Source: Arachis hypogaea
Lineage: Eukaryota; Streptophyta; Magnoliopsida; Fabales; Fabaceae
Assembly: GCF_003086295.3 (NCBI RefSeq)
Contig: NC_092051.1
Span: 80,050,445 to 80,114,444 of the forward strand
Direction of reading: 5' to 3'
DNA length: 64,000 bases
Made by a program: the position numbers and the translations under genes. Under the pieces are notes generated by a model. The model made no database searches, had not been told where the DNA came from, and saw only the letters and a list, made by a program, of their open reading frames with translations. This document shows, piece after piece, positions 2,608 to 57,854 of the stretch. Within the stretch, counting starts at the first letter, position 1; the number at the start of each line of letters is the position of its first letter.

Positions 2608-2645
2608 TTTGCTTGAGGACGAGCAAAGTTTTAAGTTTGGTGTTG
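2608..2645 (+). other. AGGA-loop hairpin plus internal purine-tract-like motif (A, copy 1)
   Basis: TTTGCTTG-AGGA-CGAGCAAA forms a stem (one G-T wobble) followed two bases later by TTTAAGTTTGGTGTT. The second copy of this module abuts the 3' LTR at 4819-4856. Confidence 0.75.
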
Positions 2646-2679
2646 GAAAAGCATAGCTTTTTTCTTTCCATTACCATTC

Positions 2680-3599
2680 ATGGCACCCAAGGTTGGGGAA
2701 TCCTCTAGAAAGAGGAAAGGAAAGGCAATAGCCACCTCCTCTGAATCTTGGGAGATGGAGAGATTCATCACCAAAGCTCATCAAGACCACTTCTATGAAG
2801 TAGTGGCTGAGAAGAAAGTGATCCCTGAGGTCCCTTTCAAGCTCAAGAAGAATGAGTATCCAAAAATCCAAAGAGAGATCCGGAGAAGAGGTTGGGAAGT
2901 TCTAACTAACCCCATTCAAGATGTTGGGATTCTAATGATGCAAGAGTTCTATGCTAATGCATGGGTTACTAAAAACCATGACACTAGTGTGAACCCAAAT
3001 CCAAGGAATTGGAGAACCATGGTCCGAGGGAGAATCTTATATTTCAGCTCGAAAAGTGTGAGATTGGCGTTCAACCTGCATTTAATGCAAGGTGACCTAC
3101 ATCTTTACACTAGGAGAGTCAACTTTGATCAGAGATTGGATCAAGTACTTTTAGACATATGTGTAGACGGAGCACAATGGAAAAGGGATTCCCAAGGCTT
3201 GACCTAAAGCCCATGGCTAGAGGATGGTTGGAATTCATCCAACATTCCATCATCCTCACTAGCAATCGGTCAGAAGTGACTGTTAACAGAGCTATCATCA
3301 TCCATTGCATCATGACTGGAAGTGAGGTGGAAGTACATGAGGTGATTCCTCAAAAATTGTACAAGATAGCTGAGAAGCCTTCTACCAATTCAAGATTGGC
3401 ATTCCCATACCTCATCTGTCATCTATGCAATTCAGCTGGAATTGTCATAAATGGAAACATCTCCATTGGGGAGGACAAGCCCATCACTAAAAAAAGGATG
3501 GAGCAAACTAGAGAGTATACACAAGAGCCTGTGCAGCCGCCTCAGTATGAAATCCCTGAGATACCTCAAGGGATGTATTTTCCTCCTCAAAGCTATTGA
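2680..3599 (+). pseudogene. 3' ORF of A with putative plant transposon-type domain, frameshifted
   Basis: The first frame starts at ATG 2680 (MAPKVGESSRKRKGKAI), has a basic, Ser-rich N-terminus that could act as a nuclear signal, and runs to a stop at 3207. The homologous reading continues in another frame from about 3159 to 3599, so a single frameshift splits it. Blocks such as FYANAW, VRGRILYFSS and ARGWLEFIQHSI resemble the legume family annotated as putative plant transposon protein (from memory, Pfam Transposase_32). It occupies the position of the env-like frame of Athila elements, but I see no signal peptide or membrane segment. B and D keep only fragments. Function unknown. Confidence 0.65.
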
Positions 3600-3639
3600 G
3601 ATCAATGGCAGACTTCTCTTGGAGAACTAAGCACTAACA

Positions 3640-3825
3640 TTGAAGCAATTGAGGATGGAGCATCAAGAGCATTCCACCACCCTCAATGAAATCAGAGAAG
3701 ATCAAAGAGCCATTAGGGAAGATCAAAGGGCTATGAGGGAAGAACAACAAAAGCAAAGGAGTGACATTGAAGAGATCAAGCATCACATAGGATCCTCAAG
3801 GAGGAGTACTAGCCGCCACCATTAA
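3640..3825 (+). pseudogene. Coiled-coil C-terminal tail of the A 3' ORF
   Basis: This frame reads as a charged, heptad-like helix with the repeated unit IREDQRAxREDQRAMREEQ and ends in SSRRSTSRHH. It is probably the end of the preceding frame after a further frameshift or stop near 3600. B (35712-35891) and D (about 56590-56710) keep the same tail, the best-conserved part of the 3' ORF. The repeated REDQRA unit suggests small in-frame duplications. Oligomerisation is an inference from the helix pattern. Confidence 0.6.
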
Positions 3826-4818
3826 AGGTGGATTCGTTCTCTTTATCTCCCTTTCCTGTTATTTTTTTCTGTTTTCTATTATGTTTTGTTTGTTCTCTTA
3901 TTCTTGTTGCATGATCATTTGCATTTATGTTTTATAGCTGTAAAATGTCCCATATATCTCTCACCTTGCTTAAAAGAAAATTTTTATTGAAAAGAATTGA
4001 GAGATACATGATTTTCAAGTTTATAATAAAAATAGTTTAATCATTTTGATGTGGTGGCATTGCTTTTGTTTTCTGAATGTATGAATAAACAGTACATATT
4101 TGAAGTTAGAATTTTAGAATGTTGGCTCTTGAAAGAATGATGATGAAAGTGAAGTATTATTAGTAATTTGAAAAATCCAAAAATTGATTCTTGAAGCAAG
4201 AAAAAGCAGCAAAAAAAAAAAAGCATGCAGAAAAAGCCAATAACCCTTTAAACCAAAAGGCAAAGGTAAAAGGATCCATGGCTTCGAGCATCAGTGGATA
4301 GGAGGGCCGAAAGGAATAAAATCATGGCCTAAGCAGCTCAACCAAGCTATCCCTAACAATGTGCTTGTGGCGTGAAGGTGTCAAGTGAAAAGCTTGAGAC
4401 TGAGCAGTTAAAGTTGTGATCCAAGAAAAAAGAGTGTGCTTAATAACTCTAGACACCTCTATCTGGGGATTCTAACAAAGCTGAATCACAATCCAAAAGG
4501 GTTCACCCAGTTAAAGTGTCTGTGGCATTTATGTATCCGGTGGTAATACTTGAAAACAAAGTGCTTAAGATCATGGCCAAGTCTCTAAAATTTGTGTTCA
4601 AGAATTAAAAAGAACTAAACTAGGAGAGTTAATAATATCATCTGGATTCTAAGTTCCTAAGGATGCCAACATCTATGAGTTTCAATGGATAGTGAGATGC
4701 TAAAACTATCCAGAAGTAAAAAGCTAGTAAGTCCCGCTCATCTAATTGAAACTGAGCTTCATTGAAAACTCTGAACTTTATTGTATCTTAATTTTCTTTT
4801 TATCTTATTGTGTTTTTA
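3826..4818 (+). other. Conserved 3' UTR of A
   Basis: About 1 kb without a coding frame. It aligns by eye with 35892-36953 (B) and 56711-57816 (D): T-rich start, ATTGATTCTTGAAGCAAGAAAAAGCAG, an A-run, then CCCTTTAAACCAAAAGGCAA, GGATAGGAGGGCC and GGTTCACCCAGTTA. Conservation between autonomous and non-autonomous members suggests cis-acting RNA functions. It includes CCGCTCATC at 4734-4742, complementary to the LTR start. Confidence 0.65.
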
Positions 4819-4856
4819 GTTGCTAGGGGATAAGCAACAGTTTAAGTTTGGTGTTG
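4819..4856 (+). promoter_or_regulatory. GGGA-loop hairpin and polypurine-tract region of A (copy 2)
   Basis: GTTGCTAG-GGGA-TAAGCAAC (one mismatch and one wobble) followed by TTTAAGTTTGGTGTTG, ending exactly at the 3' LTR. The place of plus-strand DNA priming should be here, although the tract is not purely purine. Confidence 0.75.
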
Positions 4857-7902: not shown

Positions 7903-9295
7903 TGAAGAACTGAAGATTGATGGTTTAGAAGTTATAGTAAACTCTCATTGCAAGTATAGTTACTAAACCAAGCAATCAACCTTTCTTACAAAAGTTTTGG
8001 TTATCACAAGTAACAAACCCCTTTAAAATTGATAACCGAGTATTTAAACCTCGGGTCGTCTTCTCAAGGAATTGCAGGGAAGTATGTTCTTATTATTGAT
8101 TATGAGTCTTGTAAATTGGGGGTTTTGAAAGTAAGGAACCAGTATCTTAAATGATAAGAAAAATAGAATAGTAATAATAAAATAAACTCTTGGCAAGGTA
8201 TTAGAATTGAAAGTCTTATCCTTATCAATTGTGATGAGAATTAGATTTTAATCCCACTTTGTTAACCTCTAACTATAAAGGTAAATCAAGTGGATTAATT
8301 AGCTTAATCCTCAGGTCCTAGTCAATTCCTAGTCAATTGTTTTATTTCAACCACTGCTTTATTTGACAGCTCAAGTATTACTAATTACTTAACCAAAGCC
8401 AAAAGGGAAGAGAATCTACTCGAATGAAAATAATTTGGATAAATCGAAAGCATTCATAGCATAAATAAAACAATCATAAACTGAAATACCTCAAATAACA
8501 TTAATTAAGAGAATCATATGTAACATGGAAGAGTTCATAAATTAAATTGAAAATAAATAAAAGAAACATTGAACCTGATAAAAAGAAACAATCCTGAAAG
8601 CAAAGAAATCCTAAATCCTAATCCTAAGAGAGAGGAGAGAACCTCTCTCTCTAAAAACTACATTTAAATCCTAAAATTGTGTATTGTGAGCTTGTTATCA
8701 TGAATGAATAGATTCTCTCACTTTATAGCCTCTAATCTGTGTTTTCTGGGTCGAAAACTGGGTCGAAAAGAGCCCAGAAATCGCTGGAGAAGAAAACTGC
8801 CACGCTGATTTTCGGAACTGCGATGTGTCCGCGTGGAGCGCGTGTTCGTGTCACCTAGCGCCAGGGTAACTATGGCATATTATATATCAAATCGAAGCCC
8901 CGGATGTTAGCTTTCCAACGCAACTAAAATCGCATCGTTTGGACTTCTGTAGCTAAAGTTATAGCCGTTTGAGTGCGAAGAGGTCAGGCTGGACAGCTTA
9001 GCAATTTCTCCAACTTCTTGTATTCCTTCCACTTTTGCATGCTTCCTTTCCATCCTCTGAGCCATTCCTGCCCTGTAATCTCTGAAATCACTTAACACAC
9101 ATATCAAGGCATCTAATGGTAATAAGAGAGGATTTAAACATAGGGAACTTAAGGCCAAAGAAGCATGTTTTCAATCAAAGCACATAACTAGGAAGGCAAA
9201 TGTAAACCCATGCAAATAGTATGAATAAGTGGGTAAAGAGTTGATAAAAACCACTCAATTGAGCACAAGATAAACCATAAAATAGTGGTTTATCA
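7903..9295 (-). repeat. 3' LTR of element H
   Basis: 1,393 bp, nearly the same as the LTR at 16455-17867. In the minus reading it begins TGATAAACCAC and ends CAGTTCTTCA. The boundary is confirmed by the AGGAC duplication. Confidence 0.9.
9269..9294 (-). other. LTR-terminal hairpin of H (3' LTR)
   Basis: GATAAACCA - 8-base loop - TGGTTTATC, a perfect 9-bp stem beginning at the second base of the LTR. Repeated at 17841-17866; element C has the compensated version ending CCC/GGG. Confidence 0.8.
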
Positions 9296-9333
9296 ACCTT
9301 CCCACACTTAAACTATAGCATGTCCTCATGCTA
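9296..9333 (-). promoter_or_regulatory. AGGA-loop hairpin and polypurine tract of H
   Basis: Minus strand: TAGCATG-AGGA-CATGCTA (7-bp perfect stem), then TAGTTTAAGTGTGGGAAGGT abutting the LTR. Same layout as A, B, D and E with a different stem sequence. The purine-rich GTGTGGGAAGGT is a plausible polypurine tract. Confidence 0.8.
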
Positions 9334-9542: not shown

Positions 9543-9558
9543 TATTTGTTCGTTCTTT

Positions 9559-9575
9559 CCCTGGCAATGGCGCCA
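9559..9575 (-). other. Primer-binding site of fragment I
   Basis: Minus strand TGGCGCCATTGCCAGGG, 5 bases inside the LTR end. Close to the complement of the tRNA-Asp 3' end used by Athila-type elements. Confidence 0.75.
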
Positions 9576-9580
9576 ACAAC

Positions 9581-11157: not shown

Positions 11158-12429
11158 AAAAATGAAGTACAAATAGACTTGCAAGAAGAAAATAGCTCAT
11201 GAAAGCAGGGAACAAGGAATTGAGCATCGAACCCTCACCTGAAGTGTATACACTCTAATCACTCATGTGTTTAAGGTTTTGATTCTCTCAATTCTCTACT
11301 AACCTTGCTTTCTAAGGCTTGCTCTTCATCTAACAATCAACAAAAATTTAATGCACAGATACACATATCAAGAGGTCTTTTAAGGGTTGTAATGGGGTTA
11401 GGGTCAAGGTAGGATTGTATTTGGCTAAGTGGACTAAAATCTGAATCCTTAATTAACTTAAACTTTCCACCTAACTTTAGACAATCCATGTAATCATAAT
11501 ACCACATCTAACTATCCATTAACCATGTTTTCCACATATTCATGCATTCTAATTTCAAGTACAGTACATATGCATTGCTTTCACCACTTACTTTGGGGCA
11601 TTTTGTCCCCTTTTTGCTTAATTGCTTTTTTTTTTCTTTTTTTTTCTCACTTTATATATATATATATTTTTTTTTTCTTTTCTTTTATTTTTCTCAATAC
11701 ATATGATTAAATTATTAGATGCATGAATCATGTCCTAAACATTTTTTTCACATTTTCAGAAAATTCTAACGTACTCAATTCTCAAACCAAATGTTTTCAA
11801 ACCCAATTTTCCCATACTTAAATCATAAGCACTCTCACTAGTCTAAGCTAACCAAGGATTCAAATTAAGGGCATTATTGTCTTTCGCTTAGAGTTAATGA
11901 TGTGCTAAAGTAAAGAACAAAGGGGTATAATAGGCTCAACATTGGGTTGCAAAGGAAATGAAAGGTTAAGGCCATATGGGTATGTAAGCTTAGTGAAACA
12001 AAGGCCTCAATCATGTAAGTGTATGCATACATCAAATAATGGAAATATAGAATTAAGCAAGACAAAGATCACAAATTTAGAGAGAAAAATACACACCAAA
12101 AATAAAATATTGGTTGGTAAAATGCAACCAATTCAAATAGGCTCAAAAATCTCACAGGTTTTGTGTGTTCGAGCTCTAAACCATGTTCCAGTATAATATT
12201 TCTTCAAACAAGTGTAACATTAAATTTTATTCAAATTAGTGAAATGCTCTAAAAGGTTTCTTGAAAAAGAAAATATTACTTCAATCAAGTGGTAAAATAT
12301 GCATAAAATCAAATAACCATGCAATCAAACATGGAAATGCAACAACTAACAAGGAAAATAAAATATTGGTGTTGAGAAGAAAATAACTAACCCTTGGAGA
12401 TCGGTATCGACCTCCCCACACTTAAAGAT
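11158..12429. other. Continuation of H 3' UTR, AT-rich, no gene
   Basis: Low-complexity AT-rich DNA with a TA run near 11655-11668 and T-runs. Short frames here are not supported by composition or similarity. Near 12411-12428 the minus strand reads TCTTTAAGTGTGGGGAGG, the tract of the next hairpin module. Confidence 0.55.
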
Positions 12430-12447
12430 TGCACCGTCCTCGGTGCA
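12411..12447 (-). other. AGGA-loop hairpin plus internal purine-rich tract of H (copy 1)
   Basis: Minus strand TGCACCG-AGGA-CGGTGCA (7-bp perfect stem, 12430-12447), then ATCTTTAAGTGTGGGGAGGT. This is the internal partner of the module at 9296-9333; the stem sequence differs completely but loop, spacing and tract are kept. Confidence 0.75.
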
Positions 12448-16454: not shown

Positions 16455-17867
16455 TGAAGAATTGAAGATTGATGGTTTAGAAGTTATAGTAAACTCTCAT
16501 TGCAAGTATAGTTACTAAACCAAGCAATCAACCTTTCTTACAAAAGTTTTGGTTGTCAAAAGTAACAAACCCCTATAAAATTGATAACCGAGTATTTAAA
16601 CCTCGGGTCGTCTTCTCAAGGAATTTCAGCGAAGTATGTTCTTATTATTGATTATGAGTCTTGTAAATTGGGGGTTTTGAAAGTAAGGAACCAGTATGTT
16701 AAATGATAAGAAAAATAGAATAGTAATAATAAAATAAACTCTTGGCAAGGTATTAGAATTGGAAGTCCTATCCTTATCAATTTTAATGAGAATTGGATTT
16801 TAATCCCACTTTGTTAACCTCTAACTATGAAGGTAAATCAAGTGGATTAATTAGCTTAATCCTCAGGTCCTAGTCAATTCCTATGGAAAGACTAGAGTTA
16901 TTGGAGCAACTCCCAATTTCAACCACTGCTTTATTTGACAGCTCAAGCGTTACCAATTACTTAACGAAAGCCAAAAGGAAAGAGAATCTACTCAAATGAA
17001 AATAATTTGGATAAATCGAAAGCATTCATAGCATAAATAAAACAATCATAAACTAAAATACCTCAAATAACATTAATTAAAAGAATCATATGTAACATGG
17101 AAGAGTTCATAAATTAAATTGAAAATAAATAAAAGGAACATTGAACCTGATAAAAAGAAACAATCCTGAAAGCAAAGAAATCCTAAATCCTAATCCTAAG
17201 AGAGAGGAGAGAACCTCTCTCTTTAAAAACTACATCTAAATTCTAAAATTGTGTATTGTGAGCTTGTTATCATGAATAAATGGATTCTCCCACTTTATAG
17301 CCTCTAATCTGTATTTTCTGGGTCGAAAACTGGGTCGAAAACAGCCCAGAAATCGCTGGAGAAGAAAACTGACACGCTGATTTTCGGAACTGCAACGCAT
17401 CCCTGTGGAGCGCGCGTTTGCATTGCCTAGCGTTAGGGCAACTATGGCATATTATATATCAAATCGAAGCCCCAAACGTTAGCTTCTAAACGCAACTAGA
17501 ACCGCGTCGTTTGGACCTCTGTAGCTAAAGTTATAGCCGTTTGAGTGAGAAGAGGTCAGGCTGGACAGCTTAGCAATTTCTCCAACTTCTTGTATTCCTT
17601 CCACTTTTGCATGTTTCCTTTCCATCCTCTGAGCCATTCCTGCCCTGTAATCTCTGAAATCACTTAACACACATATCAAGGCATCTAATGGTAATAAGAG
17701 AGGATTTAAACATAGGGAACTTAAGGCCAAAGAAGCATGTTTTCAATCAAAGCACATAATTAGGAAGGCAAATGTAAAACCATGCAAATAGTATGAATAA
17801 GTGGGTAAAGAGTTGATAAAAGTCACTCAATTGAGCACAAGATAAACCATAAAATAGTGGTTTATCA
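16455..17867 (-). repeat. 5' LTR of element H
   Basis: 1,413 bp. Begins (minus) TGATAAACCACTATTTTATGG with the 9-bp terminal hairpin at 17841-17866 and ends CAATTCTTCA. Differs from the 3' LTR by scattered substitutions and small indels (for example near 8330/16885), so the insertion is not recent. Confidence 0.9.
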
Positions 17868-27227: not shown

Positions 27228-28779
27228 TGATGAGCAGATAATTTATACCTTTTTGGCATTATTTCTACATAGTTTTTAGTGTGTTTTATTCACTTTTTAT
27301 TATATTTTTATTAGTTTTTATACAAAAATCACATTTCTGAGCTTTACTATGAGTTTGTGTGTTTTTCTATAATTTCAGGTAATTTCTGGCTGAAATTGAG
27401 GGACCTGAGCAAAAATCTTATTCAGAGGCTGAAAAAGGACTGCAGATGCTGTTGGATTCTGACCTTACTGCACTCGAAATGGATTTTCTGGAGCTACAGA
27501 AGCCCAATTGGCACGCTCTCAATTTTGTTGGAAAGCAGACATCCTGAGCTTTTCAGTAATATATAATAGTCTATACTTTGCCTGAGATTTGATGGTCCAA
27601 TCTGGCGTTCAAAGTCAGCCTAAAACTGTGTGGCGTAAAACGCCAGAACTGGCACCTTTTTCGGCGTTAAACGCCCATTCTGGCACCCAAGGTGGCGTTT
27701 AACGCTAGCTTTGGGCATATGAACGTGAAAGCTTGAAAGCTCAGCCCAGGCACACACCAAGTGGGTCCCAGAAGTGGAATTCTGCACTATCTGCACTTAG
27801 TTACTCATTTTCTGTAAACCTAAGTTACTAGTTTATTATAAAAACTACTTTTAGAGATTCATTTTGCAACCTATGACATTTTTACACTTCATATTGTCTT
27901 TCTGATGCCATGAGTCTCTAAACCCCATGGTTAGGGGTGAGGAGCTCTGCTGTTTTTCAATGAATTAATGCAATTACTACTGTTTTCCATTCAATCACGC
28001 TTGATTCTACTCTAAGATACTCATTCGTACTTCAATCCGGAGAAGATGATGATCCGTGACACTCATCATTATTCTCAAATCTATGAACACGTGCCTGACA
28101 ACCACTCCCATTCTATCTGAGCTCAACGTAGTCATTGAGCGACAGCTTGAATGCATATCTCTTGGGTTTCTGATCCACGGACCAAGTCCGGAGGTTAGAA
28201 CCTTCGTGGTATAGGCTAGAACCAATTGGCAATATTCCTGGGATCCGGAAAGTCTAAACCTTATCTGTGGTATTCCGAGTAGGATCTGGGAAGGGATGAC
28301 TGTGACGAGCTTCAAACCTGCGAATGTTGGGCGCAATGACAGTGTACAAAAGGACAAGGGTCCTATTCCGACGCTAGCGGGAACCGACAAATGATTAGCC
28401 GTGCGGTGATAGTGCATATGGATTTGTTTTCATCCGAGAGGATCATACAGCCTGCCATGGAAAGAGTCGTGCGTGTTCGGAGAAGAAGACAGTAGGAAAG
28501 CAGAGATTCAGATGACAAAGCATCTTCAGAACCTCAACCTGTTTCTCGTTATTGAATTACAAGTACAATTTATTTTATGTTATTTGTTCTTCATAAACAC
28601 AATCATTTTTATTACTAATTTCCTGACTAAGAGTTACGAAATAACTATAGCTGGCTTCAAGCTGACAATCTCTATGGGATTAATCCTTACTCACGTAAGG
28701 TATTACTTGGACGACCAAGTGCACTTGCTGGTTAGTTGTGCGGAGTTGTGAAAAGTGTGATTTACAATTTCGTGCACCA
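27228..28779 (+). repeat. 5' LTR of element B
   Basis: 1,552 bp, TGATGAGCAGATAATT...TTTCGTGCACCA. A palindrome cluster lies at 27602-27716 (GGCGTAAAACGCC, CGGCGTTAAACGCCC, GGTGGCGTTTAACGCTAGC). By eye it differs from the 3' LTR at several percent of positions. Confidence 0.92.
27837..27843 (+). promoter_or_regulatory. Candidate TATA box of the B LTR promoter
   Basis: TATAAAA in the middle of the LTR; D has the same motif at 48957-48963. A U3/R promoter position is plausible; the start site is not visible. Confidence 0.45.
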
Positions 28780-28785
28780 AGTTTT

Positions 28786-35525: not shown

Positions 35526-35565
35526 TTTTGCTCGAGGACGAGCAAAACTTTTAAGTTTGGTGTGG
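35526..35565 (+). other. AGGA-loop hairpin plus internal purine-tract-like motif (B, copy 1)
   Basis: TTTTGCTCG-AGGA-CGAGCAAAA, a perfect 9-bp stem, then CTTTTAAGTTTGGTGTGG. Confidence 0.85.
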
Positions 35566-35600: not shown

Positions 35601-35891
35601 ATGACACCTAAGGCCGGAGAAACCTCTAGAAAGATGAAAGGAAAGGCAGTTGCTTCCATTTCCGAGTCATGGGAGATGGAGAAATTCATCTCAAAGGCCC
35701 ATCACTAGAAAGAGGATAGAGCAAACAAGAGAGCCCATTCATGGACCTCAACAAGAGCATTCCATTATCCTCTATAAAATCAGAGAGGACCAAAAGGCCA
35801 TGAAAGAGGAGCAATAAAGCCAAGGAAGAGATATTGAGGAGCTAAAGCATTCCATGGGATCTTCAAGAAGAAGAACTAGCCGCCATCACTA
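35601..35891 (+). pseudogene. Internally deleted 3' ORF of element B
   Basis: ATG 35601 gives MTPKAGETSRKMKGKAVA..ISKAHH and stops at 35708; the following sequence matches the C-terminal part of the A frame (coiled coil, MGSSRRRTSRHH) out of frame. Relative to A about 700 bp (roughly 2784-3486) are missing, with CATCA present at both A breakpoints. The plant transposon-type domain is absent. Confidence 0.75.
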
Positions 35892-36953: not shown

Positions 36954-36991
36954 GTTGCTTGGGGACAAGCAACAATTTAAGTTTGGTGTTA
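36954..36991 (+). promoter_or_regulatory. GGGA-loop hairpin and polypurine-tract region of B (copy 2)
   Basis: GTTGCTTG-GGGA-CAAGCAAC, a perfect 8-bp stem, then AATTTAAGTTTGGTGTTA, abutting the LTR. Confidence 0.85.
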
Positions 36992-38544
36992 TGATGAGCG
37001 GATAATTTATACCCTTTTTGGCATTATTTTTACATAGTTTTTATTGTGTTTTATTCACTTTTTATTATATTTTTATTAGTTTTTATTCAAAAATCACATT
37101 TCTGGGCTTTACTATGAGTTTGTGTATTTTTCTGTAATTTCAGGTAATTTCTGGCTGAAATTGAGGGACCTGAGCAAAAATCTGATTTAGAGGCTGAAAA
37201 AGGACTGCAGATGCTGTTGGATTCTGACCCTCCTTCATTCTAAATGGATTTTCTGGAGCTACAGAGACCCAATTGGCGCGCTCTCAATTGCGTTGGAAAG
37301 CAGACATCCTGGGCTTTCCAGCAATATATAATAGTTTATACTTTGCCTAAGATTTGATGGTTCAAACTGGCGTTCAAAGTTAGCCTAAAACTATCTAGCG
37401 TAAAACGCCAGAACTGGCACCTTTCTTGGCATTAAACGCCCATTCTGGCACCTAGGGTGGCGTTTAATGCCAGCTTTAGACATATGAATGTGAAAGCTTG
37501 AAAGCTCAGCCCAGGCACACACCAAGTGGGTCCCAGAAGTGAAATTCTGCACTATCTGCACTTTGTTACTCATTTTCTGTAAACCTAAGTTACTAGTTTA
37601 GTATAAAAACTAATTTTAGACATTCATTTTGCAAGCTATGACATTTTTGCACTTCATATTGTCTTTCGGACAGCATGAGTCTCTAAACCCCATGGTTGGG
37701 GGTGAGGAGCTCTGCTGTGTTTCAATGAATTAATGCAATTACTACTGTTTTCCATTCAATCACGCTTGATTCTACTCTAATATACTCATTCGTACTTCAA
37801 TCCGGAGAAGATGATGATCTGTGACACTCATCATTATTCTCAAATCTATGAATGCGTGCCTGACAACCACTCCTGTTCTATCTGAGTCCAACATAGTCAT
37901 TGGGCGACAGCTTGAATTCGTATCTCTTGGGTTTCTGATCCACGGACCGAGTCCGGAGGTTAGAACCTTTGTGGTATAGGTTAGAACCAATTGGCAGTAT
38001 TCCTGGGATCCAGAAAGTCTAAACCTTGTCTTTGGTATTTCGAGTAGGATCTGGAAAGGGATGACTGTGACGAGCTTCAAACCTGCGAATGTTGGGCGCA
38101 GTGACAGTGTGCAAAACGACAATGGTCCTATTCCGACGCTAGTGGGAACTGACAGATGATTAGCCGTGCAGTGACAGCGCATATGGATTTGTTTTCATCC
38201 GAGAGGATCATACAGCCTGCGGTGGAAAGAGCCGTGCGTGTTCGGAGAAGAAGACAGTAGGAAAGCAGAGATTCAGATGACAAAGCATCTCCGGAACCTC
38301 AATCTATTTCTCGTTCTTGAATTACAAGTACCATTTATTTTATGTTATTTATTCTTCAGAAACACAATCATTTTTATTACTAATTTCCTGACTAAGAGTT
38401 ACGAAGTAACCATAGCTTGCTTCAAGCCGACAATCTCTGTGGTATCGACCCTTACTCACGTAAGGTATTACATGGACGACCCAGTGCACTTGCTGGTTAG
38501 TTGTGCGGAGTTGTGAAAAGTGTGATTTACAATTTCGTGCACCA
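36992..38544 (+). repeat. 3' LTR of element B
   Basis: 1,553 bp, TGATGAGCGGATAATT...TTTCGTGCACCA. Palindrome cluster at 37370-37475. An antisense frame of 136 codons (37772-38182) is mirrored in the 5' LTR only because the LTRs are duplicates. Confidence 0.92.
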
Positions 38545-44690: not shown

Positions 44691-46713
44691 TGATGGGTGG
44701 AAATCAAATTTCCATACAAAACTCATCGGCAAGTGTACCGGGTCGCATTAAGTAGTAAGAACTCACAAGAGTGAAGTCAATCCTACAAGGATTGATGGAT
44801 CAAGCAACTTTAGTTAGTGATTAGTCTAGTCAAGCTAACATTGGTGAATTGAAGTAAAATTGAAGCAACAGAATGTAAATAGTAGTGAATTTAAAGTTGC
44901 AGAAAATAAATGAGCAGAATCTTAAAGAGCAAGAAATGTAAATTGACAGAATCTTAAATGACAAGAAATGTAAATTGTATCAAATATAAAGGGGGCTGGG
45001 TACTGGGAAATTAAAGAAAGCAATAGATCAAGAAATTGAAAAGAACTTAAGAACAAGCAACTGGAAATTTAAATTGCAGGAAGAATAAAGGAAGTTGGGT
45101 GCTAGAAATTAAAACAGGACTGAAAGATAAGAAGTGCAGTAAACTAAAGAGCTCTCAGATTATGAAATTTAGAAACAGATTGATTCAGTACCAAAACAGA
45201 AATGTAGAAGTGCAGAAGAATCAAAACAGCAAGAACTTAGATCTTTCATGAAATTCCAGAAGAAAAATTGACAATGGCAGAAGAGAGAAAATGAAACAGA
45301 AAGCAAAACTCAAATCTGATCCCCAATTCTTTAAAACTCAAAAAGGAAAATTAAAAGGGAGCTCTCTATTCTACTTCTACTCCTATTGCTCTCTAATAAA
45401 GCTAGCCTTTTTTCTAAAATGGAACAGATGCCTTTTTATAGGCTTTTTCAAAAATGAAAATGAAATTAAAATTGAAAATAAAACTACAAATAAAATGAAA
45501 TTCATAATCTAATTTATCCTTGTGCCTTTGAGTGATGTCAATTGGGCCTTGCTTGCTTCGGATTTAAATGAGAATGGATCCGGATACATTTGGTGACTTG
45601 GGTCTGTGAAGAATTTGGATACAAGATGGCACTTGATGGCAAGGGTTAGGAGTGGCTTGGTGACACTCCCAGGGGAGGGCTCCGTATGGTAAGTGAACGT
45701 AGCGTTCACTCTTGCCTTGTCCTAGGCTCCTTGGTTCGCTTTCGAGCCTTCCTCGTGCCGAGTTTCCTCTTTCCCATAGTTCTCAGTTGAGTAATGCAAC
45801 ATAGCGCTACTTTTATGCCTTGGTTTCCCTCTTCGAACCCCGGGCCGTTCCCTTTTGAATGCTGCGCCTTGTTTTTTACTTTTGTGAAGCCCGAAAATGT
45901 TGAAAGAGTTAACGTAGCACTGGCCTTGCTTAGTGTCAAGCCTTCTTTGTAACGCTCCATGAAGAATTCCAATGTAGCATTGCTTTTGCTTTTCTTCACT
46001 AGCACTTAATGAGAGAGCACTGCGCTCAATTAGAGAGCACTACTTCCTTTGTTGTGCGTTACTCCTTGTTCCCTTGCTTTATATTGCATGCTTTCATTAA
46101 AAGTGTTAATGCATTAATCGTAGAAGCCAATGCAAGCATGTAATGCATTATCAATTGCCAATTGGCATAATTAATTAAAGCTTCATGCATGCTTTCATTA
46201 CATTTAATTAACTATGCCAATGCATTAACGTTGCATTCTCCAATTCTTTCTCAATTAAATGCATGCATGCTTTATTAATTAGTAATGCCATTTAATGTAA
46301 AGATCATTCATTTCATGCATGCTTTCATTAATGCCTTGAAATAATATTACTTGCATGCATCCATTGTCTTTATTAGCCAATTAATTTAGCGTTCACTTTT
46401 TGCAATGCCATGGTTGATTGGCTTAAATGCATGCATAAGGCATTAATGCATGCCATGGCTTGATGGTCATGGGCCACGCTTTTAAAAGCGTGGCCTAAGG
46501 CTCCAAAATGTGCCCCAAAATTCCTCTTTTTTTCTTTTTAGCTTATTTTGTGATTTTTTTCTTCTTTTCCTTCTTATTTCCTACAAAATTTATAAAATCA
46601 AAAGATCAAAAAAATATACCAATTAAGCACAAAAGCATTCAATATTTAAGCACAAATCATCAATTTCTTGTATAAAAAATCATACAAAAATATGACATGA
46701 TGACATGTCATCA
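44691..46713 (-). repeat. 3' LTR of element E
   Basis: 2,023 bp; minus reading TGATGACATGTCATCA...GATTTCCACCCATCA. The AGCGCT palindromes present in the other LTR are here mostly AGCACT, AACGCT or AGCATT (45915-46055), i.e. CpG lost to TpG/CpA. It lacks a stretch of about 70 bp of CATGCATGC-rich sequence found at 62520-62590. Confidence 0.92.
46698..46713 (-). other. LTR-terminal palindrome of E (3' LTR)
   Basis: TGATGACATGTCATCA, perfect 16-bp palindrome forming the LTR terminus; also at 62974-62989. Confidence 0.85.
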
Positions 46714-46749
46714 CAACACCAAACTTAAACATTGCTTGTCCCCAAGCAA
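46714..46749 (-). promoter_or_regulatory. GGGA-loop hairpin and polypurine-tract region of E
   Basis: Minus strand TTGCTTG-GGGA-CAAGCAA (7-bp perfect stem, 46732-46749), then TGTTTAAGTTTGGTGTTG abutting the LTR. Same module as A, B and D although the LTR is unrelated. Confidence 0.85.
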
Positions 46750-48340
46750 GAAAAGAATCATGCAATAGAGATTTGACAATTCAAGGTAAGAAGAATAGCA
46801 ACTCAATGTTCATGGTTGGCTAGTTTTCTATGCATGCCACAATCACAAAAGAAATGTAAATGATTGATGCTTCTATCTAGCTCATTTTATGAAATCTTTT
46901 TCTTATGTTTCTTCCTTGAAAACAAGCTTTACATTCTCTTATTAGCTTCTCCTTTTGGGTGCTTTGCCCCGTGAGTTGATAACAAAGCTACGATTCTAAA
47001 TGCTTTATTTTCAAGTATTACCACTTGACACATAAAAACCACAAGCATTTAATTAGAGGACTTCATTAAGCTCATTTGTTTCTTTTTTTGACTCTCTAAT
47101 TATTGATGCTCAGAACCTTGAACTTTGAGGGAGTGCTTTTGCACTTGAGCCTAATCTTGACTCTAAGTGTTTTGTTTTCAAGCTTTTTGCTTGATACATA
47201 AACACCACAAGTACTTAAAAATGCAATTGTCATTGGTACTCAGAGCCTTCAGCTTTCTCATTCTTTCCCTTTTTCTTTTCTTGCCTTAATTTGCAATTGC
47301 TTCTTTAAGGTTTTCATGATTTCCAAAGATTTTACAAAATATTCTAGATGAAAACTTCAATTAAATAAAATCCAATGCAATTGAGCATTAACCATACTAG
47401 CCTTCCAACACTTGTATGTACATGCTAAATTCTTCTTAAATTCCTTGTTTGTTTATGATCATGATATTTTACTGCTTTGAACTCACAAAACTCAAGTTGA
47501 TAGTCATAATGTCATAGCAACATGTTGCAAATCAAAATTCAGGCTATGCTTATTCATACCACACATGAATACAGAGAAGATAGAGACAATCATGCAATTT
47601 AAAGTGCTGGAACAAATGAGAGAAAAAGGAACTTTACAACCTTGTAATTCATATTCTCTATTGTTGTCATTTTCCTTTTATTCTTCCCTTTCCCTTGCCA
47701 AACTCAGAATGCTTGCTCATCCTCAAGCAAGAATTAGAACAATGGCTATGGGGCTAAGATGGATCATGAATGTCTTACATAATGAAAAGTCAGTAGCACA
47801 TGTGTTTTAAGCAAGCAAATTTAAAGATAACAATCAAGGCACAAGAAACAGAGACATTGTAATTGCAAGCATAAGAGGGTGTGCATGATACATTGCATAA
47901 GGATATAAGTGGCACACCAAACTTAGTGTGGCATTCTCACTTGGAATTGATGCAAGTATCCCGTGTGGATTGGAAATAAATTTTGTGGCACAGCAACACC
48001 AAACTTAGAATGCAATCCTATGTCAATTTATTTGAACTAAAACTAAACAAAGGGAACTGTTATATGTTAAATACAATAACCAAGTCAGGAATCTGTCATG
48101 AATAAGGATTTCTTGGTGATGTATTAACAAAAACAGTTAAGGAGCAAAATAAATGAAAGCTTTAAAAACAAAGAAATGACTAAAACAGAAAAAAATTAGA
48201 CCAATAGAAAGATAATACTGTAAAGGCATTATGATTATGCAGACAGGTGGTGTTGTTGGATTTCTTGCATAGAGAATTAAGTGGCACACCAAACTTAGAA
48301 TCTTAGTGTGGCACATCAAAGAAATGAAATGTTACCCAAG
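46750..48340 (-). other. 3' UTR of element E
   Basis: No gene. Contains a second hairpin module at 47698-47731 and three copies of ACCAAACTTAG (near 47918, 48000 and 48289; minus CTAAGTTTGGT), two of them followed by GTGTGGCA. AT-rich elsewhere; short frames are not supported. Confidence 0.6.
47698..47731 (-). other. AGGA-loop hairpin plus tract-like motif of E (internal copy)
   Basis: Minus strand CTTGCTTG-AGGA-TGAGCAAG (8 pairs, two of them G-T), then CATTCTGAGTTTGGC: a decayed version of the same module. Confidence 0.65.
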
Positions 48341-48346
48341 GTTGGG

Positions 48347-49890
48347 TGATGAGCGGATAATTTATACGCTTTTTGGCATTATTTTTACATAGTTTTTAGT
48401 ATGTTCTAGTTAGTTTTTTTATATTTTTATTAGTTTTTAAATAAAAATCACATTTCTAGACTTTACTATGAGTTTGTGTGTTTTTCTATAATTTTAGATA
48501 TTTTCTGGCTGAAATTGAGGGACCTGAGCAAAAATCTGATTTAGAGGCTGAAAAAGGACTGCAGATGTTGTTGGATTCTGACCTCCCTGCACTCGAAGTA
48601 GATTTTCTGGAGCTACAAAAACCCAATTGGCACGCTCTCATTTGCGTTGGAAAGTAGACATCCAGGGCTTTCTAGAAATATATAATAGTCCATACTTTGC
48701 CCAAGTTATGACGACACAAATTGGCGTTTAACGCCAAGTCTTTACCCTATTCTGGCGTTAAACGCCAGAAACAGGTTGCAAACCAGAGTTAAATGCCAGA
48801 AATAGGCTACAACCTGGCGTTTAACTCCAAAAAACGTCTCTACATGTGTAAAGCTCAATGCTCAGCCCAAGCACACACCAAGTGAGCCCCGGAAGTGGAT
48901 TTCTGCACTATCTGCACTTAGTTACTTATTTTCTGTAACCCTAGCTACTAGTTTAGTATAAAAACAACTTTTAGAGATTTATTTTACATCTGATGACATT
49001 TTACACGTTTCATATTGTATTTCTGACAGCATGAGTCTCTAAACCCCATGGTTGGGGTGAGGAGCTCTGCTATGTCTTGATGAATTAATGCAATTACATC
49101 TGTTTTCTATTCAATCACGCTTGTTTCTGTTCTAAGATACTCGCTTGTATTTAACCGTGATGAATGTGATGACCCATGACACTCATCACCATTCTCAACC
49201 TATGAACGCGTGCCTGACAACCACTTCCGTTCTGCCTTAGATTGAGTGTGTATCTCTTAGCCTCTTGGTTCATTATCAGAGTCTTCGTGGTATAGGCTAG
49301 GATTATTGGCAGCCATTTCTGAGATCCAGAAAGTCTAAACCTTGTCTGTGGTATTCCGAGTAGGATCTGGGATGGGATGACTGTGACGAGCTTCAATCTC
49401 ACGAGTGTTGGGCGTAGTGACAGATGCAAAAGGATCAATGGATCCTATTCCAACATGAGTGAGAACCGACATATGATTAGCCATGCGGTGACCGTGTATT
49501 TGGACCATTTTCACTGAAAGGATGGATGATAGCCATTAACAACGGTGATCCACGAACTTACAGCTTGCCATAGATGGAGCCTTGCATGCGTGAAGAAGAA
49601 GACAGTAGAAAAGCAGAGATTCGAAAGACAGAGCATCTCCAAATCCTCAATCTGTTCTCCATTACTGCATAACAAGTATTATTTATTTTATGCTATTTAC
49701 TCTTCATAAATATAATCACTCTTATCATTGATTTCCTGACTAAGAATTACAAAATAGCCATAGCTTGCTTCAAGCCGAAAATCTCCGTGGGATCGATCCT
49801 TACTCACGTAAGGTATTACTTGGACGACCCAGTGCACTTGCTGGTTAGTAGTACGAGTTGTGAAAAGTGTGATTTACAATTCGTGCACCA
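48347..49890 (+). repeat. 5' LTR of element D
   Basis: 1,544 bp, TGATGAGCGGATAATTTATACGC...ATTCGTGCACCA. Palindromes at 48722-48830 (TGGCGTTTAACGCCA, TGGCGTTAAACGCCA, CTGGCGTTTAACTCCA). TATA-like motif at 48957-48963. Confidence 0.95.
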
Positions 49891-49896
49891 AGTTTT

Positions 49897-49913
49897 TGGC
49901 ACCGTTGCCAGGG
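49897..49913 (+). other. Primer-binding site of element D
   Basis: TGGCACCGTTGCCAGGG, the tRNA-Asp site with two G-to-A changes, six bases after the LTR. Confidence 0.88.
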
Positions 49914-54522: not shown

Positions 54523-55893
54523 GTGGCTGATCATCTGTCCCGGATAGAACCAGTTGAAGGGGCATCCTTTCCCTCTATTGAGATCTCTGAAACCTTTCTG
54601 GATGAGTAATTGTTTGCCATTCAGAAAACACCATGGTTTGCAGACATTGCAAACTATAAAGCTGCAAGATTCATACCCAAAGAGTACAGCAGGAAACAAA
54701 AGAAAAAATTAATTACTGATACAAAGTACTACCTGTGGGATGAACCATATCTCTTTAAGAGATGTGCAGACAGAATAATCCGTAGGTGTGTGCCTAGAGA
54801 AGAAGCACAGAAGATCCTATGGCATTGTCATGGATCACAATATGTAAGACATTTTGGAGGTGAGCGAACAGCCACAAAAGTCCTCCAATGTGGCTTCTTT
54901 TGGCCCACTCTCTATAAAGACTCCCGAGAGTTTGTGCATAATTGTGACAGCTGCCAGAGAGCTGGTAATCTGCCTCATAGTTACGCCATGCCTCAACAAA
55001 GGATCTTAGAGATTGAGTTATTTGACGTATGGGGTATTGACTTCATGGGGCCTTTTCCACCATCATACTCAAACACTTATATTCTGGTGGCAGTCGACTA
55101 TGTATCCAAGTGGGTAGAGGCAATTGTAACACCCACCAATAATACTAAGACAGTGCTGAAGTTCCTCTAGAAACATATCTTCAGCAGATTTGGTGTCCCT
55201 ATAGCACTAATCAGTGATGGGGGCACTCACTTCTGCAAGAAACAACTTTACTCTGCAATGGTCCATATGTAATTAGCCACAAGGTGGCAACTCCATATCA
55301 TCCACAGGCAAATGGGCAAGCTAAAGTCTCTAATAGAGAACTAAAAAGAATCCTGGAACGGACTGTAAGTACCCGTAGAAAGGTTTGGACAAGAAACTTG
55401 GATGACGCTCTGTGGGCATACAGAACAGTATTCGAGACTCCTATAGGGACCTCTCCATACCAACTTGTGTATGGTAAGGCCTGTCATCTGCCCGTGGAAC
55501 TGGAGCATAAGGCCTACTGGGCAACCAGATTCCCAAACTTTGATGCCAAATTAGCTGGAGAAAAAAGATTGCTCCAGCTAAATGAGCTAGAGGAATTCAG
55601 ACTCACTGCTTTACAAAGAGAAAGCAAAAAGGTGGTATGACAGAAAGCTGCCATCTAGAGTCTTTGAACCAGGACAGAAGATTCTGCTGTTTAACTCTAG
55701 GCTCAGATTATTTCCTGGGAAACTGAAATCCCGGTGGAGGGGACCATATGTGATTACAAGTGTGTCACCATATGGCTATGTGGAGCTTCAAGACATTGAC
55801 TCTAATAAGAAGTTTATTGTTAATGGACAGAGAGTCAAGCATTATCTTGAAGGCAATCTTGAGCAAGAATGCTCAAAGCTGAGACTATATTAA
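54523..55893 (+). pseudogene. Element D integrase, catalytic Glu replaced
   Basis: Zinc region [14 protein letters not shown]...[10 protein letters not shown] intact. [10 protein letters not shown] and LISDGGTHF supply both Asp residues; after a stop at 55168 and a frame disturbance near 55270, the Glu motif reads [10 protein letters not shown], a Glu-to-Lys change where B has [11 protein letters not shown] deletion near 55610 shifts frame before the C-terminal domain (KLKSRWRGPYVITSVSPYGYVELQDID), which ends at 55893. Confidence 0.87.
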
Positions 55894-55934
55894 AAGCTCA
55901 GCAAGGTCCAACTAAAGACAATAAAGAAGCGCTT

Positions 55935-55952
55935 ATTGGGAGGCAACCCAAT
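55935..55952 (+). other. Post-pol hairpin of element D
   Basis: ATTGGG-AGGCAA-CCCAAT: the outermost pair is A-T where A, E and G have G-C, so pairing is kept. Preceded by AAGAAGCGCTT. Confidence 0.8.
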
Positions 55953-56087
55953 TTTTACTTATCTATGTTAATTTTCTGTTTTCCTTTTTTATTTTATGTT
56001 TTCTTTAGGACGATGATCATGTGGAGTCACAGAAATCAAAGCAAAGTCAAAAACAGCATTAAAAATAGCTCACCCTGGAGAAAGAGC

Positions 56088-56278
56088 TTACTGGCGTTTA
56101 AACGCTAGTAAGAAGCATCAGACTGGCGTTTAATGCCAGAAAGAAGCATCAAGCTGGCGTTAAACGCTAGAAACAAGCACCAAGTTGGCGTTGAACGCCA
56201 AGAAAGGGAGAAAAACTGGTGTTTAACGCCAGAAACAAGCAACAGTCTAGCATTAAACGCTAGGATTGCACTCTAAGG
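56088..56278 (+). repeat. Palindrome cluster, 3' UTR of D
   Basis: Series of CTGGCGTTTAAACGCTAG, CTGGCGTTTAATGCCAG, CTGGCGTTAAACGCTAG, TTGGCGTTGAACGCCAA and CTGGTGTTTAACGCCAG, each separated by AAGAAGCA-like spacers of about 10-15 bases. Confidence 0.87.
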
Positions 56279-56508
56279 GCATTTTGCATGCCTCAATGGA
56301 GCAGGGATGCTAAATCCTTGACCCCTCAAGATCTGTGGACCCCACAGGAATCCCACCTCTTCTTCTCTCCTCTTCACACCTTTCCATAACACTCTTCTCC
56401 ATACTCTCTTCACCACTCACATCCATCCATCATAAACCCCTCATAAAGATTCTCACCCTCCCTTGGCCTAACCCACCACACATTTCCATCTCCTCCTTTC
56501 TTTCTTAT
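56279..56508 (+). other. Pyrimidine-rich spacer of D
   Basis: C/T-rich sequence with TCTTC and CATCC runs, no supported gene; matches the spacer of A at 2241-2607 in place and composition. Confidence 0.5.
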
Positions 56509-56547
56509 TTTGCTCGAGGACGAGCAAACATTTTATGTTTGGTGTGG
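56509..56547 (+). other. AGGA-loop hairpin plus internal purine-tract-like motif (D, copy 1)
   Basis: TTTGCTCG-AGGA-CGAGCAAA, a perfect 8-bp stem, then CATTTTATGTTTGGTGTGG. Confidence 0.83.
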
Positions 56548-56580
56548 AAAAAGCCCCGCTATTTAATTTTCCATAACCAT

Positions 56581-56711
56581 ATGGCACCTTCCATGAGATT
56601 ATAGAAGATCAAAGAGCTATGAGGGAGGAGCAACAAAGGCAAGAAAGAGACATAGAGGAGCTCAAGAGCACCATTGGTTCTTCAAGAGGAAGAAGACGCC
56701 ACCCTTACTAA
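56581..56711 (+). pseudogene. Internally deleted 3' ORF of element D
   Basis: ATGGCACC at the start matches A at 2680; the next bases already match A from about 3675, so nearly the whole 3' ORF is gone. CACC occurs at both A breakpoints. The tail reads REEQQRQERDIEELKSTIGSSRGRRRHPY. A different and larger deletion than in B. Confidence 0.75.
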
Positions 56712-57816
56712 GGTGGACCCATTCCTTAATCTCCTTGTCTAATTATTTTTTCTGTTTTCGTTCTCTATGCTTTATGTTTATTTATGTTTGTGTCTGTACT
56801 ACATGATCATTAGTGTCTAGTGTCTATGTCTTAAAGCTATGAATGTCCTATGAATCCATCACCTTTCTTAAATGAAAAATGTTTTTAATCACAAAAGAAC
56901 AAGAAGTACATGATTTCAAATTCATCCTTGAAATTAGTTTAATTATTTTGATGTGGTGACAATACTTTTTGTTTCTCTAAATGAATGCTTGAACAGTGCA
57001 TATGTCTTTTGAATTTGTTGTTTATGAATGTTAAAATCGTTGGCTCTTGAAAGAATGATGAAAAAGGAGAAATGTTATTTGATAATCTGAAAAATCATAA
57101 AATTGATTCTTGAAGCTAGAAAAAGCAGTGAAAAGCAAAGGCTTGCGAATAAAAAAATGGCAAAAAAAAATAATAAAAAAAGCAAGCAGAAAAAACCAAG
57201 AGCTCTTTAAACCAAAAGGCAAGAGCAAAAAAGCCAGTAACCCTTTAAACTAAAAGGCAAGGGTAAAAAGGATCCAAGGCTTCCAGCATCAGTGGATAGG
57301 AGGGCCCACAGGAATAAAATCCTGGCCTAAGCGGCTAAACCAAGCTGTCCCTAACTATGTGCTTGTGGTGTGAAGGTGTCAAGTGAAAAGCTTGAGACTG
57401 AGCGGTTAAAGTCGTGATCCAAAGCAAAAAGAGTGTGCTTAAGAACCCTGGACACCTCTAATTGGGGACTCTAGCAAAGCTGAGTCACAATCTGAAAAGG
57501 TTCACCCAGTTATGTGTCTGTGGCATTTATGTATCCGGTGGTAATACTGGAAAACAAAGTGCTTAGGGCCACGGCCAAGACTCATAAAGTAGCTGTGTTC
57601 AAGAATCAATATACTAAACTAGGAGAATCAATAACACTATCTGGATTCTGAGTTCCTATAGATGCCAACCATTCTGAACTTCAAAGGATAAAGTGAGATG
57701 CCAAAACTATTCAGAGGCAAAAAGCTACTAGTCCCGCTCATCTAATTGGAGATAAGTTTCATTGATATTTTGGAATTTATAGTATATTCTCTTCTTTTTA
57801 TCCTATTTGATTTTCA
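56712..57816 (+). other. 3' UTR of element D
   Basis: Collinear with the 3' UTRs of A and B. A small duplication of AGCC...TTTAAACyAAAAGGCAA occurs near 57195-57265. CCGCTCATC at 57734-57742 can pair with GATGAGTGG at the LTR start through one G-U pair. Confidence 0.65.
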
Positions 57817-57854
57817 GTTGTGTGGGGACAAGCAACAATTTAAGTTTGGTGTTG
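57817..57854 (+). promoter_or_regulatory. GGGA-loop hairpin and polypurine-tract region of D (copy 2)
   Basis: GTTGTGTG-GGGA-CAAGCAAC (one mismatch, one wobble), then AATTTAAGTTTGGTGTTG, abutting the LTR. Confidence 0.8.

What the first reader, a model, noticed from the sequence alone, without database searches (positions are those of the whole stretch)
2608..57854. A two-copy module: hairpin with AGGA/GGGA loop followed by TTTAAGTKTGG, once internally and once abutting the 3' LTR
Internal copies: A 2608-2645, H 12411-12447, B 35526-35565, E 47698-47731, D 56509-56547. LTR-abutting copies: A 4819-4856, H 9296-9333, B 36954-36991, E 46714-46749, D 57817-57854. Stems differ (TTGCTCG/CGAGCAA, TTGCTTG/CAAGCAA, TAGCATG/CATGCTA, TGCACCG/CGGTGCA) but the loop is AGGA inside and AGGA or GGGA at the LTR, and the tract TTTAAGTTTGGTGTT (A, B, D, E) or TTTAAGTGTGGGGAGG (H) follows within a few bases. 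The second copy is where plus-strand DNA priming must occur, so the first may be a central polypurine-type second priming site, with the hairpin as an RNase H or integrase guide. Covariation across unrelated LTR families makes chance unlikely.
Basis: partly seen in the sequence, partly recalled or inferred. Interest (0 to 1): 0.87.

Follow-up and report, generated by a model that had tools for sequence, protein, structure and literature searches.

The report
Paired hairpin-primer signals in plant retrotransposons
Several families of peanut retrotransposons carry the same small signal twice, a short hairpin followed by a primer-like tract, once inside the element and once exactly at its right-hand end, and the hairpin's two arms change together between families, which suggests it helps start copying of the second DNA strand.

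Summary
All ten copies lie at the stated places (H and E on the minus strand; E-internal has a diverged tract, A- and D-terminal imperfect stems). In the window plus 200 kb of unselected sequence from the same 2.56-Gb genome (inferred peanut), 35 modules occur against 0.12 per dinucleotide shuffle. Of 645 perfect tetraloop hairpins, 22 of 29 with AGGA/GGGA loops precede the tract, against 1 of 616 others. Stems covary. Genome-wide, TTTAAGTGTGGGG occurs 40,865 times and AGGA-7-to-13-TTTAAGTGTGGGG 34,104 times. B and D are FIDEL-type Ty3/gypsy. E and H show no gag-pol by tblastn yet keep both copies, so the module looks cis-acting. The terminal copy occupies the plus-strand primer position; loop-to-LTR distance is 25-27 nt in five elements with both LTRs found, one of them chromovirus-like (inferred) with a different primer site and no second copy seen. 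Best reading: a hairpin-marked polypurine-tract module whose inner copy is a probable second plus-strand start, by analogy only. A pause ruler fits HIV spacing (18) but not Ty3 (~13). My searches found internal or multiple PPTs in print, but no such hairpin. New variant of a known kind.

The parts
2608..2645 (+). A internal module: hairpin TTTTGCTTG-AGGA-CGAGCAAAG plus TTTAAGTTTGGTGTTG
4819..4856 (+). A terminal module (loop GGGA, one stem mismatch), abutting the 3' LTR that starts at 4857
35526..35565 (+). B internal module
36954..36991 (+). B terminal module (loop GGGA), abutting the 3' LTR
56509..56547 (+). D internal module (tract TTTATGTTTGGTGTGG)
57817..57854 (+). D terminal module (loop GGGA, imperfect stem), abutting the 3' LTR
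47698..47731 (-).
46714..46749 (-). E terminal module (loop GGGA), abutting the 3' LTR
12411..12447 (-). H internal module: TGCACCG-AGGA-CGGTGCA plus TTTAAGTGTGGGGAGG
9296..9333 (-). H terminal module: TAGCATG-AGGA-CATGCTA plus TTTAAGTGTGGGAAGGT, abutting the 3' LTR
27228..28779 (+). B 5' LTR (93.1% to the 3' LTR); PBS follows after 6 nt
36992..38544 (+). B 3' LTR; flanks CCCGA/CCCAA (4 of 5 bases alike)
48347..49890 (+). D 5' LTR
57855..59226 (+). D 3' LTR; TSD TTGGG/TTGGG
60895..62989 (-). E 5' LTR
44691..46713 (-). E 3' LTR; TSD GTTCC/GTTCC
16455..17867 (-). H 5' LTR
7903..9295 (-). H 3' LTR; TSD GTCCT/GTCCT
2680..3207 (+). A ORF of 175 aa starting 34 nt after the internal module; weak Pfam match PF20167 below its cut-off (35.9 against 45 bits)

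Best explanation
The module is the plus-strand priming signal of these plant Ty3/gypsy elements: a hairpin with an AGGA/GGGA loop, then a T-box (TTT), then the purine-rich (H type) or purine-poor (FIDEL type) primer tract, then the U3 edge. The hairpin is kept by selection at a nearly fixed distance from the LTR and most likely marks which tract is spared and cut by RNase H, acting in the genomic RNA or in the minus-strand DNA. The internal copy, about 1.0-2.2 kb upstream (nested insertion in H discounted) and with the element's own tract type in A, B, D and H, is most likely a second plus-strand start comparable to the internal PPT of Ty1 or the central PPT of lentiviruses. Shown: position, structure, covariation, pairing of copies, retention in elements without detected gag-pol. 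Inferred: priming at either copy, and the role of the hairpin.
For: [quoted passage not shown] Covariation. Twenty more hairpins were chosen by right arm before the left arm was seen: 12 have all seven inner pairs, 5 six, 3 five, G-U counted. E and H give no tblastn hit (E <= 1e-3) to the gag, protease, RT/RH or integrase pieces used, yet keep both copies, so the copies are not by-products of coding. The tract type agrees between the two copies of an element (GTTTGGTGT in A, B, D; GTGTGGG in H) while the stems of the two copies differ. Spacing: among the first 100 listed tracts, 26 same-strand neighbour pairs lie within 4 kb, 22 of them 1.40-1.77 kb apart; 4 pairs are on opposite strands. Loop-to-LTR distance: 26, 26, 25 and 27 nt in B, D, E and H, and 25 in a chromovirus-like element with both LTRs found; 25-28 in all 12 junctions I tabulated, seven of them with the LTR start read from its TGAT-type beginning only. 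T-box/U-box upstream of PPTs is known (PMC10085805, passages); second starts in Ty1 and retroviruses (PMC5371799, passages) and primate lentiviruses (PMC3616985, passages).
Against: No plus-strand 5' ends were mapped. The FIDEL-type terminal tract has only 7 purines in 13, poor for a PPT. The authors of PMC3616985 thought it unlikely that RNA structure per se modulates PPT priming, because the primer works in a hybrid. Tracts without hairpins also occur in the leaders. E internal has lost the canonical tract. 2 of the 8 pattern-called terminal copies with enough upstream sequence show no internal copy even in the relaxed list. The chromovirus-like loci showed no second copy, though only about 1 kb (9 kb at one locus) upstream was fetched and not scanned systematically. 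Terminal copies in the sample were recognised by an LTR-type start within 14 nt of the tract, so part of the constancy of spacing is by construction. In one search two of five measures (pairs with a double change, further pair types) did not exceed the shuffles clearly. Only one host genome was available.
Confidence: 0.5

Rival explanations
1. The hairpin is an RNA-stage signal (Gag/nucleocapsid binding, packaging, RNA stability or dimer contact) that lies next to the PPT for positional reasons; two copies raise avidity. The tract is then the PPT only at the LTR.
For: Elements without detected gag-pol keep both copies, as expected of a packaging signal. Among tract-preceding perfect hairpins the loop is nearly fixed (22 of 23 AGGA/GGGA) while stems vary, typical of protein-recognised loops. 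G-U closing pairs outnumber A-C closing pairs genome-wide, 1,654 to 1,042, a modest lean towards RNA.
Against: The near-fixed distance to the LTR and the fact that the tract, not only the hairpin, is repeated at the internal site are unexplained. In the fetched set G-U and A-C were about equal, 15 to 13.
Confidence: 0.2
2. The internal copy is a relic: an ancestor ended there, and the stretch with the extra ORF region and a second module was gained downstream by recombination. The inner copy has no present function.
For: The internal copy lies downstream of integrase in B and D, and an ORF starts 34 nt after it in A. Terminal and internal surroundings of A are partly alike (68% over 98 nt, module included). 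Inner copies are sometimes decayed (E tract; L028 and L033 loops).
Against: Copies of internal type recur with intact pairing in FIDEL-type, H-type and further families with different stems, and in elements without detected pol; the tract follows the element's own terminal tract in A, B, D and H.
Confidence: 0.17
3. Pause ruler: reverse transcriptase copies the tract, stalls at the hairpin base, and this places RNase H at the PPT/U3 edge.
For: Hairpin base to LTR is 16-20 nt in the 12 junctions tabulated, outermost pair with at most one mismatch; HIV-1 RNase H cuts 18 nt from the polymerase site (PMC5766924, passages).
Against: For Ty3, the nearer relative, about 13 bp separate the two sites (PMC5371799, passages). 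Stems of 7-9 pairs (-6 to -12 kcal/mol) may be weak blocks. The constant distance may be shared ancestry.
Confidence: 0.08
4. Translation or subgenomic-RNA element for a downstream env-like ORF.
For: The A ORF begins 34 nt after the internal module.
Against: No long ORF starts within 400 nt after the internal copy in H, E, B or D (longest 52, 29, 35 and 30 aa), though these copies may be decayed; the terminal copy has no ORF to serve.
Confidence: 0.03
5. DNA palindrome read by integrase or a host factor on the double-stranded copy.
For: Stem mismatches in the fetched set are nearly strand-symmetric (15 G-T, 13 A-C).
Against: The inner copy is far from the DNA ends; the whole-genome closing-pair counts lean to G-U.
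Confidence: 0.02

Closest known systems
Central/internal polypurine tracts of lentiviruses and Ty1
   Same: Second primer tract upstream of the terminal one (PMC3616985 passages; [quoted passage not shown]
   Different: No covarying hairpin directly 5' of each tract is described in the passages read; here priming at the inner copy is unproven, and it lies after pol in B and D
Sirevirus (Ty1/copia) multiple PPTs with inverted repeat at the terminal PPT (PMC2829016, passages)
   Different: There the inverted repeat spans the PPT and its right arm lies inside the 3' LTR, and the upstream PPTs lack it; here a compact hairpin lies wholly 5' of the tract and accompanies both copies
Bongo3 chromovirus additional PPT (PPTa), Beta vulgaris (PMC3605345, passages)
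   Same: Plant Ty3/gypsy element with an extra PPT upstream of the terminal one
   Different: No hairpin mentioned (0 occurrences of the word); Bongo1, Bongo2 and the other clades lack the duplication
T-box/U-box upstream of PPT (retroviruses, Ty1; PMC10085805, passages)
   Same: TTT directly 5' of the purine stretch in the module
   Different: Here the T-box is preceded by a covarying RGGA hairpin
FIDEL of peanut (Athila-like affiliation recalled; primers from PMC3496627, passages)
   Same: B, D and the solo LTR: 7 of 8 printed FIDEL-related qPCR primers match the window with 0-3 mismatches, at B, D, the solo LTR and one further LTR fragment; 0 of 4 control primers do. A is joined to them by LTR similarity only (77-83%)
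   Different: E and H are other families; a DOI recalled for the original FIDEL description was not held

Membership tests
Plus-strand primer tract (PPT) of LTR elements: terminal copy | Abuts the 3' LTR | tested here: met
   A, B, D, E, H
Plus-strand primer tract (PPT) of LTR elements: terminal copy | Purine-rich | tested here: inconclusive
   11 of 13 purines in H, 7 of 13 in the FIDEL-type terminal tract
Plus-strand primer tract (PPT) of LTR elements: terminal copy | RNase H resistance and use as primer | not testable with these tools
   needs biochemistry or mapped 5' ends
Central/internal PPT | Second copy of the element's own PPT inside the element | tested here: met
   A, B, D and H; in E the inner tract is diverged
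Central/internal PPT | Plus-strand initiation at the inner copy | not testable with these tools
   no 5'-end data
Sirevirus-type multi-PPT junction | Inverted repeat whose right arm lies in the 3' LTR | tested here: not met
   both arms of this hairpin lie 5' of the tract; a further repeat reaching into the LTR was not sought
Ty3/gypsy (Athila/Tat group) | gag-PR-RT-RH-INT order with integrase after RNase H | tested here: met
   B and D pieces, Pfam and tblastn; no such pieces detected in E and H, read as non-autonomous
Ty3/gypsy (Athila/Tat group) | PBS of the Asp tRNA type a few nt from the LTR | tested here: inconclusive
   TGGCRCCRTTGCCRGGGA 6 nt after the LTR in B and D, similar in E (6 nt) and H (3 nt); the tRNA assignment is recalled
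Athila lineage proper | RT/INT phylogeny | not tested
   no tree was made
Chromovirus (the L038/L069 element) | Gypsy-type RT, Met-type PBS, chromodomain | tested here: inconclusive
   an L069 ORF matches RVT_1; PBS-like TTTGGTATCA follows the 5' LTR (Met assignment recalled, Met PBS stated for chromoviruses in PMC3605345); no chromodomain was sought

The most novel reading that the evidence does not exclude
Plant Ty3/gypsy elements, Athila-type and chromovirus-type alike, share an ancient structured plus-strand origin: an RGGA hairpin held 25-28 nt from the LTR that selects the primer tract, so that even a purine-poor tract can prime; Athila-type elements duplicate the whole origin to start plus-strand synthesis twice.
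Probability: 0.3. Interest if true: 0.75.

Novelty: new variant of a known kind. Interest (0 to 1): 0.58.

Why it matters
What makes reverse transcriptase choose one tract as the plus-strand primer is not settled, and PPTs have no common consensus sequence (PMC3185511, passages). A covarying hairpin next to the tract, in tens of thousands of copies in one genome, would be a structural determinant that can be tested directly. It would also give a marker for locating 3' LTR edges and for grouping non-autonomous elements.

Tried and rejected
Relatives in IMG/VR viral contigs: one pattern scan and one integrase-protein scan gave none. Rfam: 0 matches at gathering thresholds in the window. Direct text search for six tract strings in papers: 0. 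A purine-rich chromovirus-like pattern (65 matches, 19 with the pattern reversed): the eight loci first fetched (L009-L016) have no hairpin; three others picked from the list do, two of them with one unpaired position in six; the remaining matches were not fetched. A further pattern (13 matches, 5 reversed) gave one more chromovirus-like sequence at two places with identical 307 bases. Alignment A2 of whole modules shifted the right arms and was not used for covariation. The FIDEL-type LTR found directly after an H-type internal module at L049 looked like a chimera, but is a nested solo LTR with target duplication GTCGG. The flexible-loop score was too permissive for a test (5 of 92 above the 99% control) and was replaced. 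Strand asymmetry: 15 G-T against 13 A-C in fetched modules; genome-wide closing pair 1,654 against 1,042, a modest lean only, and fixed family variants may contribute. No covariance model, protein fold or homologous-protein search was run.

Full report
What was checked. The ten sites were read directly. Each has a hairpin with a four-base AGGA or GGGA loop; in nine the tract that follows is of the form TTTAAGTKTGG or one change from it (D internal), and in E internal it has diverged. A, B and D lie on the plus strand, H and E on the minus strand. Two terminal stems (A, D) are imperfect.

More than chance. In the window alone an [AG]GGA loop with six or more contiguous pairs occurs eight times on both strands, and all eight are the module. 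I then took 20 unselected 10-kb stretches of the same genome. In these plus the window, 35 modules were found against a mean of 0.12 and maximum of 1 in 100 dinucleotide shuffles, and 35 against 3 in reversed sequence at a looser cut. Of 645 perfect six-pair-or-longer tetraloop hairpins, 23 precede the tract; 22 of these have AGGA (13 of 18) or GGGA (9 of 11), and 1 of the 616 others does. With G-U pairs and a mismatch allowed, 34 of 63 tract-preceding hairpins have those loops, the rest being scattered over 21 others with at most 4 each.

Covariation. Copies were selected by loop and tract only, without asking for pairing: 33 copies, 25 distinct, of which one (window 48007-48028, 2 of 7 pairs) is plainly not a module and was kept in the count. 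Inner seven-pair occupancy was 93%, against 66% when right arms were exchanged among sequences (maximum 78% in 2000 permutations). The pair count gave 45 double-change cells against 17.7 (s.d. 3.1) shuffled, and covariation score 0.563 against 0.182 (0 of 500 as high), with slid structures at most 0.204. Two measures were less clear: pairs with any double change (8 against 6.5; 65 of 500 shuffles as high) and further pair types (18 against 15.6; 59 of 500). The tool warns that related sequences can exceed such shuffles without structure. Twenty more copies were chosen from a genome listing for the diversity of their right arm, before the left arm was seen: 12 have all seven inner pairs, 5 six and 3 five, with stems such as AGCATCG/CGATGCT, AGCACGG/CCGTGCT and GGCACCG/TGGTGCC.

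Genome scale. The window lies in a 2,557,474,382-base assembly; size and FIDEL-related primers (7 of 8 match with 0-3 mismatches, 0 of 4 control primers) point to cultivated peanut, which is an inference. GAGGACGAGCAAA followed by TTTAAGTTTGGTGT occurs 8,345 times (reversed pattern 0). TTTAAGTGTGGGG occurs 40,865 times (reversed pattern 187), and AGGA, 7-13 bases, TTTAAGTGTGGGG 34,104 times (reversed pattern 0). These are two separate counts, exact matches only; I read the ratio as the share of tracts with AGGA upstream. Among the first 100 listed tracts there are 26 same-strand neighbour pairs closer than 4 kb, 22 of them 1.40-1.77 kb apart, and 4 opposite-strand pairs.

The elements. LTRs and flanks were read: D has TSD TTGGG, E GTTCC, H GTCCT, and B flanks alike in 4 of 5 bases (CCCGA/CCCAA). 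LTR identities by aligned segment are about 90-95%. B and D carry gag, protease, RT/RNase H and integrase pieces with Ty3/gypsy order. E (internal part about 3.3 kb without the nested D) and H give no tblastn hit to those pieces, and A only to the protease piece. The PBS after the 5' LTRs is of one kind in B, D, E and H, 6 nt from the LTR in B, D and E and 3 nt in H (its Asp-tRNA assignment is recalled). Internal-to-terminal distance is 2211 (A), 1428 (B), 1308 (D), 982 (E) and 3114 (H), the last being 1510 once a nested solo LTR is discounted. In the unselected sample 12 terminal copies were called by an LTR-start pattern, 8 of them with at least 2.6 kb upstream: four have an internal copy on the scan, two more a copy with a mutated loop, two none; two terminal-like copies missed by that pattern both have one.

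How it most likely works. The terminal copy ends where plus-strand DNA of an LTR element must begin, so its tract is taken as the primer: TTT is the T-box known upstream of PPTs (PMC10085805, passages), and the following stretch is purine-rich in H (11 of 13) though not in FIDEL-type copies (7 of 13). The hairpin directly 5' of it varies in sequence but keeps its pairing, loop and distance. Loop to LTR is 26, 26, 25 and 27 nt in B, D, E and H. It is 25-28 nt in all 12 junctions I tabulated; these were chosen by me, seven have the LTR start read from its first bases only, and sample copies were recognised by a start within 14 nt of the tract, so constancy is partly by construction. Two of the twelve are chromovirus-like. 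One of them has an LTR pair 92.6% alike, ends TGATACG...CGTATCA in the 3' copy (the 5' copy begins TT), flanks ATTTT on both sides, a Met-type PBS by resemblance and an ORF with RVT_1; no chromodomain was sought. The architecture thus seems to cross two lineages in this genome, from few loci and with shorter stems, partly in coding sequence. The two copies of an element share the tract type while their stems differ, which fits two sites read by one enzyme. I therefore prefer two plus-strand origins. This is inference: nothing here shows a DNA 5' end.

The step from hairpin to function is open. A pausing ruler fits the HIV distance of 18 nt (PMC5766924, passages) and the 16-20 nt measured here, but Ty3 RT has about 13 bp (PMC5371799, passages), and PMC3616985 (passages) argues that RNA structure per se is unlikely to modulate PPT use. 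A packaging or Gag-binding role is a serious rival. G-U closing pairs exceed A-C ones genome-wide (1,654 to 1,042), which leans towards RNA, but only modestly, and the fetched set shows 15 to 13.

Literature. Nine full-text searches were answered; one search was an argument error. Passages of PMC11963269, PMC1142308, PMC2829016, PMC6317226, PMC3605345, PMC3616985, PMC3185511, PMC5766924, PMC10085805, PMC3496627, PMC10373317, PMC7264820, PMC4079200, PMC3059260 and PMC5371799 were seen; no paper was read whole. None of these passages describes an RGGA hairpin at the PPT. Multiple or internal PPTs are described in Sireviruses, in Bongo3, in Ty1 and in lentiviruses. The Athila4/Calypso paper (PMC155253) and a DOI recalled for the FIDEL paper were not held, and supplements were not open, so an earlier description cannot be excluded.

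Noticed in passing
window 29015-29365 (+), 50111-50587 (+), 15779-16186 (-), 19767-20097 (-): The tract TTTAAGTTTGGTGT(C), or one change from it, recurs several times, often after A-rich aaaaat, in 5' leader/gag regions, without the RGGA hairpin. If the tract alone were a primer site these would be further starts; perhaps the hairpin tells them apart.
   Followed up: partly
L021:8964-9045; similar in L024 and L028; window 1676 (+), 6913 (-): TCTAAGTTTGGTGTTG recurs, in L021 three times in about 70 bases after CCCCACA/TTCAAAC-type sequence, another tract-like repeat without hairpin.
   Followed up: no
G000:C1:16538377-16553250: Three tract pairs at a period of about 6.66 kb on one strand, as in a tandem array of a short element sharing LTRs.
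   Followed up: no
L049/L068 (G000:C1:12630970-12633097): A FIDEL-type solo LTR inserted just 3' of an H-type internal module, target duplication GTCGG.
   Followed up: yes
window 44691-62989: D (48347-59226) is nested inside E; B (27228-38544) is nested inside another gypsy element whose RT/RNase H region is split at about 27.2 and 38.5 kb; an LTR without partner (about 9558-11161, -) is nested in H between its two modules.
   Followed up: partly
window 56090-56260, 519-827, 35017-35088: Tandem repeats with a palindromic GGCGTTNAACGCC-type core in the elements.
   Followed up: no
window 28785-28830, 49896-49940: Downstream of the PBS a TTGTTCGAGTTTGGACAA stretch resembles the module hairpin and tract; possible structural partner, untested.
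   Followed up: no
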